Below, piece after piece: positions 43,509-49,440 of a stretch of 49,440 nucleotides of DNA (position 1 is the first letter of the stretch; each line of letters opens with the position of its first letter). Source of the DNA: Bacteroidales bacterium (GTDB lineage: Bacteria; Bacteroidota; Bacteroidia; Bacteroidales; UBA932); the NCBI GenBank assembly GCA_017469425.1, contig JAFUGJ010000020.1, forward strand, positions 1-49,440, in the 5' to 3' direction. A program made the translations under genes and the position numbers. The notes beneath the pieces are model-generated. The model was not told the origin of the DNA. It worked only from the letters and a program-made list of their open reading frames with translations, and ran no database searches.

Positions 43509-44783
43509 TTATAAGACGTTCCTAAGAAGCCAGTCAACTATGTTGACTTTCTTGATTTTAGCGCCACCATACTCCTCATCACCCCTTTCATTCAGGGTTA
43601 TCAGCGTTAGATTCTTGCAGCCGAATTGGGCGTAGCCTTTAGCGAGGCCGCCCAATTCGCGGTTTCTGGTCTTTACTGTGTCAATCTTATAGGTGACCTG
43701 AATGAGTTCCAGAATCTTAGTCTTATCCACAACTACGAAGTCTATTTCATACCCATCCTTGTGGAAATAGACATCCACGTTTTCCCTCTTGTATCGGCGC
43801 AGAAGTTCGATATACACTATGTTTTCCATACGGTAGCCCAGATTCTCCGTCGTGAGCGTACTCTCCCTGTCGGACTGGAAAGCAACATCCACGATGTAGG
43901 CCTTCTCGCCCCTTATTCTTTCGGCGCTCTTGTATGAATACTTGTTTATTCCCTGGAGCAGGAAGGCCTGCTTCAGATAGGAATAGTAGTTTTCGGCCGT
44001 ATGGTCAGAGCCGAAGCCAAAGAGTTTCGCCAAGTTAGAGACCACCACTTCTTGGCAGAAGTTGTCAACCAGGTAGTTGGCCATCTTGCGAAGTGCGTCC
44101 ACGTAGCGAATCTTGAAGCGCTTGGCGATATCTTTCTTGATTATGGCATCCATAAGGGAGGTGACATAACCCCTCTGTTCCTTCAGGTTGAAGGTCTCAG
44201 GGAAACCGCCTTTTCGCAGATATTCGCCAAAGGCGACCTTGATGAACGCCTGGGTCTTGGTGGAGAGGTCTTTGGTATCGAGCCCCTTCATCCGGCAGAA
44301 TTCCTCGAACGAGAACGGGTACAAGGATATCTCATTGTACCGGCCTGTAAGGTGTGTGGCCAGATCTGAACTGAGCAGTTTCGCATTGGACCCGGTAAGG
44401 ACGATGTGCATCTTCTTTCGCAGCAGCCTGTTCACGAACAGATGCCACCCCGTGACGTTCTGCGCTTCATCCAGAAACAGGTAATCGAAATCTCCATATA
44501 CCATGTATGCAGCCTCCAAAACCGTATTGAGATCCTTCTTCGTCAGGTCCTCCAGGTTTTCATCGTCGAAGTTCACGTAGCCGAACTTCTTCCCCGATTC
44601 TATGAGGACCTTGAGGCAAAGCATGGATTTGCCGCTCCGGCGAACACCGATGACGACTTGTGCCAGCTTGCTCTCCAGATCGAACTGGCTCTCCTCCCTG
44701 CGGGGGCAGAGGTCTTTAACATCAACTTCCTCGATTTCTTTTTTCTGGTCCGTAAGTATCCGGACAATATCGTAAAGGTCCAT
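43509..44783 (-). CDS. AAA_14/DUF4143 family ATPase
   Basis: The 424-residue protein has an N-terminal P-loop domain with GVRRSGKS (46-53) and Walker B YLFLDEAQN (101-109), a TGSNAKLL sensor-like segment (~135-142) and TGRYNEISLYPFSFEEF. The C-terminal half is DUF4143, with the family ending around EIDFVVVDKTKILELIQV. These ATPases are abundant in Bacteroidota and archaea and often vary between strains; their cellular role is not established. The -7 box TAACTTTG lies 20 bases before the ATG. No partner gene is coupled to it. Confidence 0.9.
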   Translation of the reverse strand: MDLYDIVRILTDQKKEIEEVDVKDLCPRREESQFDLESKLAQVVIGVRRSGKSMLCLKVLIESGKKFGYVNFDDENLEDLTKKDLNTVLEAAYMVYGDFDYLFLDEAQNVTGWHLFVNRLLRKKMHIVLTGSNAKLLSSDLATHLTGRYNEISLYPFSFEEFCRMKGLDTKDLSTKTQAFIKVAFGEYLRKGGFPETFNLKEQRGYVTSLMDAIIKKDIAKRFKIRYVDALRKMANYLVDNFCQEVVVSNLAKLFGFGSDHTAENYYSYLKQAFLLQGINKYSYKSAERIRGEKAYIVDVAFQSDRESTLTTENLGYRMENIVYIELLRRYKRENVDVYFHKDGYEIDFVVVDKTKILELIQVTYKIDTVKTRNRELGGLAKGYAQFGCKNLTLITLNERGDEEYGGAKIKKVNIVDWLLRNVL

Positions 44784-44945: not shown

Positions 44946-45101
44946 TCATAACAGCATCTTGATGGCCGCCTTGGAATCTTCTTCAACCAACCCGGTATGA
45001 GGATCCATCCTAAGCTGGTTTTCAAACCCCAAATCAGCATCATCAAGGATGACGTATCGGTCATCCGGATGTTGCTTTATCTTGTCCATAGCGAGTATCA
45101 T
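44946..45101 (-). pseudogene. C-terminal remnant of a HAD domain like those of Swiss-Army-Knife RNA-repair proteins
   Basis: A 51-codon frame encodes YVILDDADLGF followed by MDPHTGLVEEDSKAAIKML. This is the pattern of the end of the small HAD domain (HAD_SAK type): a hydrophobic strand ending in DD, then DPxTGLTxxDAxxAIxxL. The catalytic N-terminal half (DxDG motif) is missing; upstream, the same DNA is read in another frame by the unknown gene at 45061-45501. It therefore looks like a gene stump left by a deletion. Assignment is by motif memory and needs a profile search. Confidence 0.55.
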
Positions 45102-45501
45102 TCATGATAATTTTCCAATTCAGGGGGAACAAATGCACCGCCCCGAAGATGACGAAGTGGTTTTTGCTCACACGTGAAAAACGCAAATTCTTATATGGGC
45201 AAAAGTTCCATTTCTTTGAACCGTCGGGAGGAAAATACCGCTTTTTGTTCTGCTGAAGGAATTTAAGAAAAGGAACAATCTGTTCAGGCCTAAGGAAAGT
45301 ACCTTCATCCTTCTCTTCGATATCATCTCTCTCAAGAGGCGAGGCCTTTTCAAAGTCGAAAACCGGCGTATCCTTACAAGTGAAGTCTTGCATATCACAT
45401 GATACCATGTGTGCGTCTTCCGGTACACAGTATTCGTCAAGCGGAATTCCAGGATGTTTTCCGAAAGGGGGATTATAAGCCCCCCAGTACGATCCGGCCA
45501 T
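45061..45501 (-). CDS. Hypothetical protein, unrecognised
   Basis: The 146-residue product starts MAGSYWGAYNPPFG; a TTG two codons upstream would instead overlap the 415-residue gene by four bases. It has no signal peptide or membrane segment and contains four Cys (CVPED, SCDMQ, FTCKD, FCPYK) that could bind metal. I do not recognise a family. Its last 14 codons overlap the HAD remnant in another frame, so the natural C-terminus may have been replaced. It is apparently co-transcribed with the 415-residue gene before it. Confidence 0.6.
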   Translation of the reverse strand: MAGSYWGAYNPPFGKHPGIPLDEYCVPEDAHMVSCDMQDFTCKDTPVFDFEKASPLERDDIEEKDEGTFLRPEQIVPFLKFLQQNKKRYFPPDGSKKWNFCPYKNLRFSRVSKNHFVIFGAVHLFPLNWKIIMNDTRYGQDKATSG

Positions 45502-45503
45502 CG

Positions 45504-46751
45504 TCAACTCCTTTTTACATCATTAAGATTCAGGAACTTGATTCCGGCATCTTCGAAGAGTTTCCGTTGGCTGTCACCACGAGATTTCTTGTCCGAATGA
45601 GATGTCGGGCCGAAGAACAGAATGTCACCTCGGCCTCGTCCTGAATCCGTGTATATGGCAGCAGTGGCAGGACGGATATCCTCATAGCCGCGAACCATTG
45701 CTACGTCCGTGAGTGCCTGCAGGCCCCTGTCGTTGCTGTAGAAAGGAACAAAGCGGCCGTCGTCCTCATAAAATCCGGTGTCAATCTTGTTGACGTACCA
45801 GTACACCATTGGATGAACTTCTCCTCCCATAGAGAAGTACTTGAAGTCGTACTGCTCGGCATCCTTGACAAACTGGCTCCCGGGATCAAAGTCGTAATTT
45901 TGCATCGACAGGTGTTCGACACGGCACGGCTCGCAGCCGAGCTTCTCGGCAACATCCATCACGATGCGCGCAACTCTATCCGAATAGCCTCCGACGCGGA
46001 TAGTGATGTGCCGGGTTGCGGTAAGGATGTATTGGACAATGTCCGCGTGTAATAAATAAGGCGGTTCCGGAAACATTGTCCTGGCGAAGGCCTTCCCCTC
46101 ATCGAATATGGCCAGCACTGCACCAGGGGTGTCTATGGAATCAATGAAATCCTTGACTTGCAGAGGTAGTGGACGTCCGTGATAGGGCCTTTCTTTCCGG
46201 CGTTCCTTCTCTTTGGCTTCTGCCTCCGCCCTTATGCGCAGAATCTCTTCTTCGGAGAGTCTCTTTTCAAGGGTTTTCAAATGCTGCTCTCTCAGAGCGT
46301 AATTCATCACGCTATTGTAGTGTGACTGCAGAGCAGACCAGTCTTCCTTCCCTTGCCTGTACCCTTCATTTCGGAACCGGAGTGTCCAAGAATAAAGATG
46401 CGAGTAATCACTAATTCTCAGAATGTCGCCCGTACCGGAAGGGTTAAACCCGGAGAGGTCGACTTCATCTGTGATAACCAGTCCGGTTTTGTCCTTGACA
46501 ATGCCGATTATAACATCATTTCGCTTCTGTAAATCTTCATGACCAGGAACGGCGTAAAGAATCTTGAAGCAGGAGAGCAGCGTAGCGAGTGGCGCTCTGT
46601 CACTCCCGAAAAGCTGCACAGGTTCTGTAAACAACCCTTTCCGGAAGTGAGGCATTTCAGCTAAGCAACTGAATTTTTGGACATTGCTGAAGAAGGCGGC
46701 GAGGGTGAGCTCTTCTTTGTAGTTAAGGTCTCTTTTGATTGTCTCTTGCAT
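45504..46751 (-). CDS. Hypothetical two-domain protein, unrecognised
   Basis: The 415-residue soluble protein has an N-terminal mixed domain (~1-165) and a charged helix likely to form a coiled coil (~170-195, rich in E, K and R). A C-terminal alpha/beta domain follows (~200-415), with segments such as GAVLAIFDEGKAF, ITIRVGGYSDRVAR and GRGRGDILFFGPTS. No catalytic signature that I know is visible. It follows the kinase/Thg1-like/phosphoesterase genes on the same strand after a 54-base gap and precedes the 146-residue gene without a gap. A link to those genes is suggested only by position. Confidence 0.65.
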   Translation of the reverse strand: MQETIKRDLNYKEELTLAAFFSNVQKFSCLAEMPHFRKGLFTEPVQLFGSDRAPLATLLSCFKILYAVPGHEDLQKRNDVIIGIVKDKTGLVITDEVDLSGFNPSGTGDILRISDYSHLYSWTLRFRNEGYRQGKEDWSALQSHYNSVMNYALREQHLKTLEKRLSEEEILRIRAEAEAKEKERRKERPYHGRPLPLQVKDFIDSIDTPGAVLAIFDEGKAFARTMFPEPPYLLHADIVQYILTATRHITIRVGGYSDRVARIVMDVAEKLGCEPCRVEHLSMQNYDFDPGSQFVKDAEQYDFKYFSMGGEVHPMVYWYVNKIDTGFYEDDGRFVPFYSNDRGLQALTDVAMVRGYEDIRPATAAIYTDSGRGRGDILFFGPTSHSDKKSRGDSQRKLFEDAGIKFLNLNDVKRS

Positions 46752-46805: not shown

Positions 46806-47072
46806 CTACTCCTTTTTCAGATTGAGAATAATCTTATCATCAGCAGCGATCTGCCTGATTTCTATTACCCTATATTTTCCGATAAATCCACCAGCCACAA
46901 TCATTGGTCCCCCTTCCGGATCTACGGCGACAATAGGGTCTTCTCCGGTGATAGTCAAATAATTTCCATGGTAGTTAAGTTCATACCAAGGACTATCAGG
47001 ACAGGTCTGCTGAAGGTAGTTGCCCCGGCTATACCGGTTGGAAAGGAAAATGATTTCCTTGTGCTCCGGCAT
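46806..47072 (-). CDS. Small hypothetical protein downstream of the metallophosphoesterase
   Basis: The 88-residue frame starts MPEHKEIIFLSNRY and has a beta-rich central part (ITGEDPIVAVDPEGGPMIV) that looks like a small barrel or SH3-like domain. No family is recognised. The start lies 22 bases after the metallophosphoesterase stop. The frame is open upstream through the 3' end of that gene, where it encodes a plausible phosphoesterase C-terminus, so this may be the tail of a fused or frameshifted gene and not a separate one. Confidence 0.5.
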   Translation of the reverse strand: MPEHKEIIFLSNRYSRGNYLQQTCPDSPWYELNYHGNYLTITGEDPIVAVDPEGGPMIVAGGFIGKYRVIEIRQIAADDKIILNLKKE

Positions 47073-47094
47073 GTTTTCCGTAGGACAGTCCAAA

Positions 47095-47853
47095 TCAACT
47101 GCGCGGTCTCCTGAGAAGTTCCTTGCACATACACCATATGCGGCGTACCCACACCTGGTTGGATGCCATACGAGTCTGGCCGATGACCGTTTCAATGCTC
47201 CTGTGCGAGTGTCCGTACACCCATAGGTCGATTCCGGAATCGGCAATATAGTCCGTCAAATCGACGGTAAAACCGCATTCAAGGTTGGACCTTACGAATT
47301 CGGGGGCAACCAGAAGTCGGCTGGGCACATGATGGGTCACCACCACTTTATGCTTTGCCGTACTCTTGTACACGGCGGCCTTAATGAAATCCAAGTCCCT
47401 TTCGTGCAATTCATTATAAGTCGTCGCCGTGAAGGGTTTCCTACCATTCTTAATCAAACTGAAATCGCTCATCCCGACCTTGAGTGTCAGCCATTTGCTC
47501 ATCGGGATATGGGACCACAGCGTGGACAGGATAAACTCGGTATCGTCCACGATGACGTTTCCGTTTTCATACATGGCCACATTGTCCCGCAGAGGCCGGC
47601 GCCAGGCGACCGGATACTTCGAGATGTCATCGCGGTAGTATTCGTGATTGCCCGGAACCAGGAATGTCTCCTTGAAGTTGTCGGCGCACCAGTCAAAGAA
47701 TCGGTGCTGCTTATAACTATCGAACTCTTTCAGCGGAAGCGTGTCTCCGGCAAGAACCAGAACATCACCTACAACCTTGAAAGGGTTTCGGGCAATGAAC
47801 ACGGAGTTATCGTAGAGCTCCAGGTGCAGGTCTGATGCGTATTGTACTTTCAT
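47095..47853 (-). CDS. Calcineurin-like metallophosphoesterase, C-terminus possibly frameshifted
   Basis: The 252-residue protein has the full binuclear metal site of the fold: DLH (Asp8, His10), GDT (Asp37), GNHEYY (Asn69, His70), THH (174-175) and GHSH (His215, His217). After TRMASNQ (~228-233) the usual hydrophobic GY strand is lacking in this frame but appears one frame over (GYAAYGVCARNF), pointing to one extra base near 47151-47154. The catalytic part is unaffected. It overlaps the Thg1-like gene by ATGA. A role in removing phosphates or cleaving phosphodiesters at RNA ends fits its neighbours but is inferred. Confidence 0.85.
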   Translation of the reverse strand: MKVQYASDLHLELYDNSVFIARNPFKVVGDVLVLAGDTLPLKEFDSYKQHRFFDWCADNFKETFLVPGNHEYYRDDISKYPVAWRRPLRDNVAMYENGNVIVDDTEFILSTLWSHIPMSKWLTLKVGMSDFSLIKNGRKPFTATTYNELHERDLDFIKAAVYKSTAKHKVVVTHHVPSRLLVAPEFVRSNLECGFTVDLTDYIADSGIDLWVYGHSHRSIETVIGQTRMASNQVWVRRIWCMCKELLRRPRS

Positions 47854-48596
47854 TTAATAAGATCTATTGGGACATAGTTTTTTGCCAGTTCATAATCTGC
47901 GTAAACTTCACGGCGGATGGCCTTTACATCTTTACCCGTGATCGGGTTATGGCCGACCTTCTCGTAATTTCTCCAGTAGACACCGACTCCTCGTTTCTGC
48001 CATACGGGAAGGTCATTGAAATTGATGCCGCGCTGGAAGAGGAACTCGTTCTTGTAAGCGATGCTTTTCCCCTCCAGCTCTTCTGAAGCTTTAGCGGCGT
48101 TCCTGCCCTCCTTCCTAAGGCTCCAATAGCACCAGGAATTGAGGCAGTTGCGGTGTGCGTCTTCCATCCTCCAGCGAAAATAGTCGGCGACCAAGTCTTC
48201 ATTCGGAAGCGGAATAATCCGACAGTCAAAGACAGCCGGGAGTCCAACCTGTAAGGAGAAACGGGCACTTGCGGCACCGGCAAGAATTGAGTTCAGTTTG
48301 CGGACTTTGCGCCCGAAAACCTGAGCGTCCCTGCCAAAGAGCAGGGAGATTTCGTCGCTCTGGGTATATCCGTAGACGATTTCCATACCCGTATCTGCCA
48401 CCAGGCCTTTTACAGTCTCCACCATCATCTGGTTGAAGCGTTCGTCGAAGGGCGCTTCAAACTTGCAGACTTCCTTGGTGAGCCTGGTGAAACTTCTACC
48501 GTCTATGCGGGCCAGAAGGTAGTTTTCCGGCGGTATTATCTGGTCCAGCGACCGCTCGTAGACGCGCATTTTGGCGTCCAAATCATCAAATTTCAT
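47850..48596 (-). CDS. Thg1-like protein (tRNA-His guanylyltransferase superfamily, 3'-5' polymerase)
   Basis: The 248-residue protein has the palm-domain metal motifs of Thg1: RIDGRSFTRL with Asp32 and Gly33, and YTQSDEISLLF with Asp81 and Glu82. Further shared segments are FDCRIIPLP and DAHRNCLNSWCYW, the latter standing in for the HINNLYN motif of eukaryotic Thg1. Bacterial Thg1-like proteins add nucleotides in the 3'-5' direction and can repair truncated tRNA 5' ends; many bacteria do not need them for tRNA-His because G-1 is encoded. It overlaps the kinase gene upstream and the phosphoesterase gene downstream, each by ATGA, so the three are made together. Confidence 0.92.
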   Translation of the reverse strand: MKFDDLDAKMRVYERSLDQIIPPENYLLARIDGRSFTRLTKEVCKFEAPFDERFNQMMVETVKGLVADTGMEIVYGYTQSDEISLLFGRDAQVFGRKVRKLNSILAGAASARFSLQVGLPAVFDCRIIPLPNEDLVADYFRWRMEDAHRNCLNSWCYWSLRKEGRNAAKASEELEGKSIAYKNEFLFQRGINFNDLPVWQKRGVGVYWRNYEKVGHNPITGKDVKAIRREVYADYELAKNYVPIDLIK

Positions 48597-49048
48597 AGTT
48601 CATCTTCCTCTATAAAAGTGCTGACATCAAACCCGTCCGGGGCAATCCGGACAAAAAATATATTATCAAATCCTTCCACCCTGGAAGGCATCTCCAACTT
48701 ATTGGAAGTCGCCGCAATAGCATGCGAAGGAACTTTCATTCCACGTTCTTCATTTCTTAGGATACAGTCCTTGACCCTACTCTGAAAGAAATAACATTCA
48801 ACGCGATATCCTGCCGCCTTTAGCTTGGGAATATAACGCTGTCGGTCTTCACGTGTAGGATTCGTATTGTCAATCACAATGGACTCCCCGGATGAGATGC
48901 TTTGATCCAACATTCTCTGTTCCCGCCTGCGATAATGAAGCAGGTCCATACTGACATGGGTATAGCCCAGCGGCTTTAACCGTTCCCTGTAAAAGGTCGA
49001 TTTACCGCTGGCCTGTATGCCCACAAATATGATGGCTTTCTTTTGCAT
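48593..49048 (-). CDS. P-loop kinase of the polynucleotide-kinase type
   Basis: The 151-residue protein is a bare P-loop kinase domain: Walker A GIQASGKST (10-18), Asp35 as likely base in VSMDLL, IDNTNPTREDR (59-69) as in Pnk and AAA_33 kinases, and an arginine-rich lid (R91, R98, R102). The NTNPT context is typical of 5'-hydroxyl polynucleotide kinases such as T4 Pnk. Phosphorylating a 5'-OH RNA end would create the substrate for the Thg1-like partner. It is first in the operon, behind the promoter at 49059-49090. Specificity for RNA is inferred from context. Confidence 0.85.
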   Translation of the reverse strand: MQKKAIIFVGIQASGKSTFYRERLKPLGYTHVSMDLLHYRRREQRMLDQSISSGESIVIDNTNPTREDRQRYIPKLKAAGYRVECYFFQSRVKDCILRNEERGMKVPSHAIAATSNKLEMPSRVEGFDNIFFVRIAPDGFDVSTFIEEDEL

Positions 49049-49058
49049 ATCCCGTTCA

Positions 49059-49090
49059 CAAATATAGTGCTTCTGCCATATCGTTTCAAA
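49059..49090 (-). promoter_or_regulatory. Bacteroidales-type promoter of the kinase/Thg1-like/phosphoesterase operon
   Basis: On the minus strand TTTG (49090-49087), a 20-base spacer and TATATTTG (49066-49059) match both consensus boxes. The -7 box ends ten bases before the kinase ATG, giving a short leader. The -33 box begins directly after the end of the broken phosphoesterase frame. Confidence 0.82.
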
Positions 49091-49440
49091 TTATTGCGAG
49101 ACTTGCAGACTCAAACTATTGCTTTTATAATTCCTCTTTCCGAGAGTCGGGAACAGCATATTCAGACGCGGGTTGTCCAACCCGGTATGCGACAGCGGGC
49201 CACTGTGGACATGGCCGAAGAGTTGCGGACATCACGATATGAGCCTCCATAGCACAGGAAAGGATTGTGGTTCAGGCTGATACTCTGCCCACCAACGCAA
49301 ATGGACATTTGCCGGGTCACCAGCTCAAAGCGCTGCATGCATCCGCCTTTGATGTTCTTCATGTCGTGGTTACCCAAGATAAGGTAAATCTTCCCGTGGA
49401 GTCGGTACACGATGTCATTCCAATCGCGCGGGTGCCCCAT
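49091..49440 (-). pseudogene. Second metallophosphoesterase, frameshifted and with a lost C-terminus (5' end outside window)
   Basis: The frame entering from the right edge encodes LGNHD (~22-26), an LNHNPFLCYGG metal segment (His58) and SYRDV, then becomes nonsense and stops at 49162. One base off, the DNA encodes QLFGHVHSGPLSHTG and NPRLNMLFPT, the expected end of a phosphoesterase with its GHVH metal ligands. A one-base loss near 49226-49227, in a codon that is usually Trp, accounts for this. After LFPT the shifted frame runs 17 unrelated codons to 49091, so the usual tail is also missing. As written, the enzyme lacks its last two His ligands. Confidence 0.8.

What the first reader, a model, noticed from the sequence alone, without database searches (positions are those of the whole stretch)
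47095..49048. Three-gene kinase / Thg1-like polymerase / metallophosphoesterase operon: candidate RNA end-repair cassette
Seen: three genes overlapping by ATGA on both joints, behind a two-box promoter, each with intact catalytic motifs (Walker A and NTNPT; RIDGR and QSDE; the full phosphoesterase metal set). Known: Pnk-type kinases phosphorylate 5'-OH ends, Thg1-like proteins extend RNA in the 3'-5' direction from a 5' end, and phosphoesterases can remove phosphates or open cyclic ones. Inference: together they could clean, phosphorylate and rebuild damaged tRNA 5' ends, for example after ribotoxin attack. There is no ligase in the window, so a host ligase or a gene beyond the right edge would be needed.
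Basis: partly seen in the sequence, partly recalled or inferred. Interest (0 to 1): 0.72.

Follow-up and report, generated by a model that had tools for sequence, protein, structure and literature searches.

The report
Kinase plus reverse-polymerase RNA repair operon
A rumen-type Bacteroidales genome carries a small operon pairing an RNA 5'-end kinase with a polymerase that builds RNA backwards, a pair already known from bacteria and probably used to mend damaged RNA ends; here it sits among phosphatase genes, two of which look broken.

Summary
The kinase (48593-49048), Thg1-like protein (47850-48596) and metallophosphoesterase (47095-47853) are real: minus strand, ATGA overlaps at both joints, Bacteroidota-type promoter upstream. 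Kinase-Thg1 is the conserved core: a kinase lies directly upstream of Thg1 in 59 of 83 related bacterial loci. That pair and its RNA-repair reading were published in 2010 (PMC2904730). The third gene is weaker. Its frame breaks after residue 234; the remainder, as in an own-genome paralog, lies in another frame as a separate ORF. A second phosphoesterase at the contig edge is also frame-broken. By my three phosphoesterase profiles, none of the 83 loci has an upstream kinase and a phosphoesterase near Thg1. Yet both phosphoesterase families recur beside RNA ligases, Thg1 or other repair genes, so RNA repair is the best reading. The bin shows no RtcB, RNA_ligase or PNKP_ligase match, but the contig ends there. 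Newest point: this Thg1 clade has mostly lost the basic residue that positions ATP for 5'-end activation (K/R in 6 of 88; 6 of 6 chosen outgroup), predicting GTP-dependent activation or pre-activated substrates.

The parts
48593..49048 (-). [quoted passage not shown]
   Evidence: Pfam AAA_33 E 2.9e-14; best PDB sequence matches are PNKP kinase domains, E 9e-16; D60, N61, T62, N63 and R102 kept in 58-60 of 60 aligned kinases
47850..48596 (-). Thg1-like 3'-5' RNA polymerase, 248 aa
   Evidence: Pfam Thg1 7.5e-31 and Thg1C 1.2e-14; PDB 5axk, annotated Thg1-like protein, E 7.9e-38; D32, S80, D81, E82, K100 in 88 of 88 clade members, A48 in place of the activation lysine
47095..47853 (-). Calcineurin-like metallophosphoesterase (family called MPEc0 here); residues 1-234 in frame with relatives, last 18 out of frame
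   Evidence: Pfam Metallophos 8.9e-12; D8, H10, D37, N69, H70, H174, H215, H217 invariant in 40 aligned members; relatives stop matching at 234-235 or, in 77 of 80 viral rows, at 226-240
46806..47246 (-). ORF whose frame carries the C-terminal part of the same phosphoesterase gene
   Evidence: 45% identity over 115 columns to residues 233-345 of the own-genome paralog L108:7135-8172, E 1e-30
49148..49440 (-). Second phosphoesterase (family called MPE2 here), remnant in two frames, cut by the contig end
   Evidence: 67.6% over 71 aa (49228-49440) and 73% over 26 aa (49148-49225) to L108:3726-4349 in two different frames; phrog_547 phosphoesterase E 9.4e-6
49059..49090 (-). Bacteroidota-type promoter TTTG-N20-TATATTTG ahead of the kinase
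   Evidence: 5 matches in the window, 0.73 expected; consensus recalled
45061..45507 (-). ORF of unknown function shared with the second phosphoesterase-rich island of this genome
   Evidence: 24% over 134 aa to L108:6555-7133, E 6e-7

Best explanation
The locus is an RNA end-repair (healing) module, probably on a horizontally acquired island. Most likely order of work: an endonuclease leaves a 5'-OH and a 3' or 2',3'-cyclic phosphate; the kinase phosphorylates the 5'-OH (inferred); the Thg1-like enzyme activates that 5' end and adds back lost 5' nucleotides against the paired strand (inferred from family biochemistry); a phosphoesterase clears the 3' end (inferred, weakest step, and possibly already lost here because its gene is frame-broken); a ligase supplied from elsewhere seals, or no sealing is needed when the substrate is a 5'-shortened tRNA acceptor stem. 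Shown here: family membership, conserved motif residues, operon layout, conserved kinase-Thg1 linkage, recurrence of Thg1 and of both phosphoesterase families beside RNA ligases and other repair genes. Not shown: any activity or substrate.
For: Kinase directly upstream of Thg1 in 59 of 83 loci carrying ten phylum labels. In the 39 loci with at least 9 kb on both sides, kinase homologues lie within 4 kb in 28 and beyond 5.5 kb in 1; a ligase or RtcB profile lies within 4 kb in 12 (beyond 5.5 kb: X348 in 1, RtcB in 1). Neighbours include RNA_ligase, RNA_lig_T4_1, RlaP, Hen1 and RtcB. Butyrivibrio L017 has contiguous Thg1, RNA ligase, MPE2, second RNA ligase, AAA_33 kinase. Viral contig L147 has, on one strand, an AAA_33 kinase, two ORFs without a Pfam match, Thg1, MPEc0, a T4-Rnl2-type ligase, an NfeD-like protein (below cut-off) and an SPFH protein. 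A genome of the same family has MPE2, MPEc0 and an Rnl2-type ligase side by side (L116). The own genome also holds TROVE and HAD_SAK_2 ('Swiss Army Knife RNA repair') genes with phosphoesterases on contig C45. The tRNA-His gene seen already encodes G-1.
Against: An upstream kinase and a phosphoesterase never flank Thg1 together in the 83 bacterial loci, by three phosphoesterase profiles. The nearest relative (L011, Thg1 84% identical) shows no kinase in its 11.4 kb. Phosphoesterase frame broken. No RtcB, RNA_ligase or PNKP_ligase match in the 94%-complete bin. Eleven of 83 loci have none of upstream kinase, ligase or phosphoesterase nearby, though one of them (L032) has only 205 bases upstream. 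The 12 loci with a phosphoesterase are mostly one rumen Lachnospiraceae group, so they are not independent. MPEc0 also occurs in a different module with a nucleotidyltransferase-like gene in 11 of 80 viral loci. The viral MPEc0 counts have no background control. Around phage-type Thg1 the X348 ligase is not enriched (3 loci near, 4 far).
Confidence: 0.68

Rival explanations
1. Only the kinase-Thg1 pair is functional; the phosphoesterases are decaying passengers of a phosphoesterase-rich mobile island, so there is no three-gene system. (This can hold together with the best explanation, as it concerns the third gene only.)
For: Both phosphoesterase genes are frame-broken while kinase and Thg1 are open with their own promoter; intact paralogs of both sit on contig C45; kinase and phosphoesterase do not flank Thg1 together elsewhere (0 of 83); GC falls from 0.538 at 42-44 kb to 0.485 at 44-48 kb, though 14-16 kb is also low at 0.500.
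Against: Frame breaks near a contig end may be assembly errors; both phosphoesterase families recur near Thg1 or RNA ligases in other genomes and phages.
Confidence: 0.45
2. The Thg1-like protein matures tRNA-His by adding G-1.
For: Family name and founding activity (PMC6471195, section 3.2 read).
Against: The one tRNA-His gene seen in the own genome encodes G-1 with an eight-pair acceptor stem; only 1 of 199 genomes of the family and 5 of 395 of the phylum, own included, carry a Thg1 match; neighbours are often repair genes.
Confidence: 0.04
3. An anti-phage or counter-defence module acting on nucleotide signals or nucleic acid ends rather than a housekeeping repair system.
For: Patchy distribution; phage-borne relatives of both phosphoesterases; weak match of MPEc0 to PADLOC candidate model PDC-S10, E 4.6e-9; the gene after Thg1 in L055 is HsdM.
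Against: No PADLOC match at E 0.001 for kinase or Thg1; with two peptide patterns the Thg1 clade was found in only 1 viral contig.
Confidence: 0.15
4. The kinase and polymerase act on unrelated small molecules or DNA.
For: AAA_33 is a broad kinase family (recalled); the PSTK model also matches the kinase (E 1.3e-5, far below its cut-off) and so does Zeta_toxin (E 5.5e-6).
Against: Best solved-structure match by sequence is PNKP (E 9e-16); neighbours of the pair elsewhere are RNA ligases, RlaP and Hen1.
Confidence: 0.08

Closest known systems
PNK-Thg1 conserved gene neighbourhood of bacteria (Anantharaman, Iyer, Aravind 2010, PMC2904730; abstract and passages seen)
   Same: [quoted passage not shown] the same inference of 5'-end repair; RNA ligases in a subset
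   Different: No MACRO match among the 10 right-end ORFs scanned and no ligase match in the bin; phosphoesterase genes flank the pair, and the word phosphoesterase occurs once in that paper, in a reference title
Bacterial Pnkp/Hen1/Rnl and RtcB RNA repair systems (PMC4411300, PMC7790460, seen in listings only)
   Same: Kinase, phosphoesterase and nucleotide-adding functions; Hen1 and RlaP lie beside the kinase-Thg1 pair on a Deinococcus plasmid
   Different: No RtcB or PNKP_ligase match in the own bin; Hen1 was not searched there
Jumbo-phage RNA repair sets (PMC7824862 section 3.4.9, passages seen)
   Same: Kinase, calcineurin-like phosphatase, Thg1 and Rnl2 are all named there as repair parts; viral contig L147 carries them together
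   Different: The window Thg1 belongs to a bacterial clade separated from the phage Thg1 proteins sampled (SH-aLRT 100, quick tree)

Membership tests
PNK-Thg1 repair neighbourhood (PMC2904730) | P-loop kinase of the PNK type encoded next to Thg1 | tested here: met
   59 of 83 relatives share it
PNK-Thg1 repair neighbourhood (PMC2904730) | RNA ligase in the neighbourhood (only a subset of published cases) | tested here: inconclusive
   No RtcB, RNA_ligase or PNKP_ligase match in the bin, with controls ringing in 9, 6 and 1 of 14 genomes; RNA_lig_T4_1 search rang nowhere; contig ends at 49440
Thg1/TLP family | Thg1 and Thg1C domains over curated cut-offs; metal carboxylates and SDE motif | tested here: met
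   D32, S80, D81, E82 in 88 of 88 clade members
ATP-activated Thg1/TLP mechanism (BtTLP K43, ScThg1 K44) | Lysine that contacts the activating ATP | tested here: not met
   A48 in the window; K or R in 6 of 88 clade members, 6 of 6 chosen outgroup proteins; role of K43/K44 from PMC3701042 passages
tRNA-His G-1 maturation by Thg1 | tRNA-His gene lacking encoded G-1 | tested here: not met
   The tRNA-His gene in L317 encodes G-1 opposite C73; 16 of the 46 tRNA matches came without a locus, and not all of those were typed
Calcineurin-like phosphoesterases | Metal-binding motif set (set recalled) | tested here: met
   but the gene frame breaks after residue 234
RNA 3'-phosphatase of repair systems | Activity on 3' or cyclic phosphate RNA ends | not testable with these tools
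   needs an enzyme assay

The most novel reading that the evidence does not exclude
A large bacterial Thg1-like clade, carrying at least ten phylum labels and tied to a 5' kinase and RNA ligases, has given up the lysine that positions ATP for 5'-adenylylation. These enzymes would then be a second kind of reverse polymerase: activated by GTP, or extending ends already capped as App-RNA by the partner ligase or left as triphosphates, and rebuilding 5' ends of nicked RNA before sealing, with calcineurin-like phosphatases as the matching 3'-end healers.
Probability: 0.22. Interest if true: 0.68.

Novelty: new variant of a known kind. Interest (0 to 1): 0.43.

Why it matters
The natural substrates of bacterial Thg1-like proteins are an open question (PMC6471195, section 3.2, read). 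The kinase-Thg1-ligase clusters catalogued here, and the loss of the activation lysine in most of the clade, turn that into a direct biochemical test with named enzymes. If the phosphoesterases belong, they give these clusters the 3'-end healing step that the published pair lacks.

Tried and rejected
Rejected: the three genes as a conserved unit, because an upstream kinase and a phosphoesterase do not flank Thg1 together in any of 83 other bacterial loci (three phosphoesterase profiles only, so other families could be missed). Rejected: phage origin of the Thg1 gene, because phage Thg1 proteins match at no more than 36.1% in the rows listed (60 of 118 records listed, 30), the phage ones sampled fall outside the clade, and only 1 viral contig carried a clade member (two peptide patterns). 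Rejected: tRNA-His maturation. Considered and set aside: lysine K41 as a clade-specific replacement for the lost activation lysine; it is common in the outgroup too (K in 3, R in 2 of 6), and 46 of 88 clade members have no K or R from position 42 to 48.

The tree is the quick version, the careful search did not finish, and it warns of long branches.

Profiles used for counting were built from the same loci. The 88 proteins were 84 hand-picked, mostly from the operon walk (one search listed 227 same-strand neighbours), plus 4 from two plasmids chosen for their annotation; RlaP 7 and Hen1 3 include plasmid genes, and most of the 88 matched no repair family. The six outgroup proteins were my choice. 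The 80 viral loci include near-copies (for example L214, L215, L217), and L210 is the same contig as L147.
Full report
What is there. On the minus strand three ORFs lie in tandem: 48593-49048 (151 aa), 47850-48596 (248 aa) and 47095-47853 (252 aa), each joint overlapping by ATGA. Ahead of the first lies TTTG-N20-TATATTTG at 49090-49059; the window has 5 such matches against 0.73 expected. Pfam names them AAA_33, Thg1 with Thg1C, and Metallophos. The kinase matches PNKP kinase domains best among solved structures by sequence (E 9e-16), the Thg1-like protein an entry annotated as Thg1-like, 5axk (E 7.9e-38). The contig ends at 49440.

The third ORF is not whole. Relatives were found in 12 of 199 genomes of the family, own included; every match there that spans the region stops at residue 234 or 235. 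Of 80 viral matches, 77 end at 226-240 and 3 at 250-252. In the alignments most relatives go on with a conserved NQ-GY motif. The own genome holds a paralog of 345 residues on contig C45, 74% identical over residues 1-234; its last 113 residues match window ORF 46806-47246, in another frame, at 45% (E 1e-30). So one gene is split by a frame break. Just upstream of the kinase promoter a second phosphoesterase (MPE2) is present as two pieces in two frames, 68% and 73% identical to an intact C45 paralog. Whether these breaks are decay or assembly error near a contig end cannot be told here. GC is 0.538 at 42-44 kb and 0.485 at 44-48 kb, with another dip to 0.500 at 14-16 kb. C45 carries a sister island with four phosphoesterase genes, one fused to HAD_SAK_2, and some 17-24 kb from them a TROVE gene.

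How conserved is the linkage. Thg1 is rare: 1 of 199 genomes of the family (the own one) and 5 of 395 of the phylum, own included. A scan of species genomes gave 350 relatives; the best 80 were kept. With L007-L009 these are 83 loci. A kinase homologue lies directly upstream of Thg1 in 59, an RNA ligase or RtcB within 4.5 kb in 21, a phosphoesterase of three profiled families within 4.5 kb in 12, upstream kinase plus phosphoesterase in 0; 10 of the 12 also have a ligase; 11 loci have none of the three. In the 39 loci with at least 9 kb on both sides, kinase homologues are within 4 kb in 28 and beyond 5.5 kb in 1; MPE2 6 and 0; MPEa 5 and 2; any ligase or RtcB within 4 kb in 12. The commonest kinase-Thg1 overlap, by longest-ORF starts, is 11 bases (29 loci), so tight coupling is general though its form differs from the ATGA seen here. 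The quick tree puts 88 Thg1 proteins on one side and six phage, plasmid and other bacterial ones on the other (SH-aLRT 100), and pairs the window with L011, a ruminant Bacteroidales, away from the main Bacteroidota group, as expected for lateral transfer; it warns of long branches.

Company kept. Three layouts recur. First, the bare kinase-Thg1 pair. Second, kinase-Thg1-RNA ligase, often followed by a second kinase-bearing protein (HD plus AAA_33 in L045), in Planctomycetota and in Pseudobacteroides, with Hen1 in L074 and L085 and RlaP profile matches in eight loci of the set. Third, in rumen Lachnospiraceae, Thg1 without an upstream kinase but with an OB-fold RNA ligase, MPE2 and, in some, a T4-Rnl1-type ligase; L017 adds an AAA_33 kinase, all contiguous. 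On a Deinococcus plasmid the kinase-Thg1 pair is followed about 0.9 kb on by Hen1 and two nucleotidyltransferase genes, the first an RlaP. The nearest relative L011 has MPE2, an 83-residue ORF and Thg1, no kinase in the stretch seen, and an MPEc0 gene 5.8 kb away on the other strand. Of 80 viral MPEc0 loci, 2 also hold Thg1, 11 a ligase profile, 2 RtcB, 2 RlaP, 1 TROVE, and 11 a nucleotidyltransferase-like gene; there is no background control for these. Viral contig L147 strings together an AAA_33 kinase, two ORFs without a Pfam match, Thg1, MPEc0, a T4-Rnl2-type ligase, an NfeD-like and an SPFH gene. Around 80 phage-type Thg1 loci, profiles within 4 kb and beyond 6 kb count: HAD_SAK 13 and 1, Rnl2 5 and 0, MPE2 3 and 0, kinase 3 and 1, MPEc0 1 and 0, RlaP 1 and 0, but X348 ligase 3 and 4. 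In a same-family genome MPE2, MPEc0 and an Rnl2-type ligase adjoin, without a Thg1 match in the 13 kb seen (L116). These results carry the RNA-repair reading and extend it to the phosphoesterase families, though not to the exact three-gene unit.

Mechanism. The one tRNA-His gene seen in the own genome encodes G-1 paired with C73, so G-1 addition would be redundant. The likeliest chain is kinase making a 5' phosphate, Thg1 activating it and adding lost nucleotides, phosphoesterase clearing the 3' end, and a ligase from elsewhere. Searches of the bin for RtcB, RNA_ligase and PNKP_ligase found none while controls rang; the bin is 94% complete and the contig ends here, so a ligase may be out of view, or the target may be a 5'-shortened tRNA that needs no sealing.

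The unexpected point. In BtTLP and yeast Thg1 a lysine (K43/K44) contacts or positions the activating ATP; K43A in BtTLP leaves GTP activation virtually unchanged, and the authors think the role likely universal (PMC3701042, passages seen). In the window this position is Ala48. In the clade it is A in 71, S 5, K 5, V 3, T 3, R 1 of 88; in the six outgroup proteins I chose, K 4, R 2; the solved structures 5axk and 3otb also show K there (alignments). The stretch from T40 to P49 is three residues longer than in the six outgroup proteins in 86 of 88, but 5axk has the longer form with K, so length alone does not explain the change. Other activation and transfer residues stay invariant (R30, S80, D81, E82, K100, R126 in 88 of 88). 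In 46 of 88 no K or R lies from position 42 to 48. This predicts GTP-dependent activation or use of pre-activated ends. The rows listed by the paper searches showed nothing on this loss or on phosphoesterases as partners of Thg1, but the library is partial and only titles and abstract starts were seen for most; PMC7824862 already names calcineurin-like domains as a repair phosphatase in a few jumbo phages.

Verdict. A real kinase-Thg1 operon of a published kind, with a frame-broken phosphoesterase attached. RNA repair is well supported by context, not shown as an activity.

Noticed in passing
own genome contig C45, loci L107 and L108: A second phosphoesterase-rich island: four phosphoesterase genes, one fused to HAD_SAK_2, and some 17-24 kb away a TROVE/Ro60 gene, a second HAD_SAK_2 gene and a phosphoesterase fragment.
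   Followed up: partly
L109, L110, L111, L112, L114, L121 and 10 of the 80 viral loci: A recurrent three-gene module of a winged-helix-like gene, a nucleotidyltransferase-like gene (name by eye; no Pfam match in L109) and an MPEc0 phosphoesterase; in L121 it lies among phage-like genes (by eye). Possibly a toxin-antitoxin or defence unit.
   Followed up: partly
L147, 395-7406: Viral contig with kinase, Thg1, MPEc0, Rnl2-type ligase, NfeD-like and SPFH genes in one run, perhaps a complete phage RNA repair set.
   Followed up: partly
L123 (Deinococcus taeanensis plasmid): Kinase-Thg1 pair followed within about 1 kb by Hen1 and two nucleotidyltransferase genes, the first an RlaP.
   Followed up: partly
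window 45504-46751: 415-residue protein without a match in Pfam, NCBIfam, PHROGs or PADLOC at the thresholds used, downstream of the operon.
   Followed up: no
window 43509-44783: AAA_14/DUF4143 ATPase matching PADLOC candidate defence model PDC-S01, E 5e-99.
   Followed up: no
L055, 10776-13317: HsdM-type methylase gene directly downstream of Thg1, so this copy may sit in a defence island.
   Followed up: no
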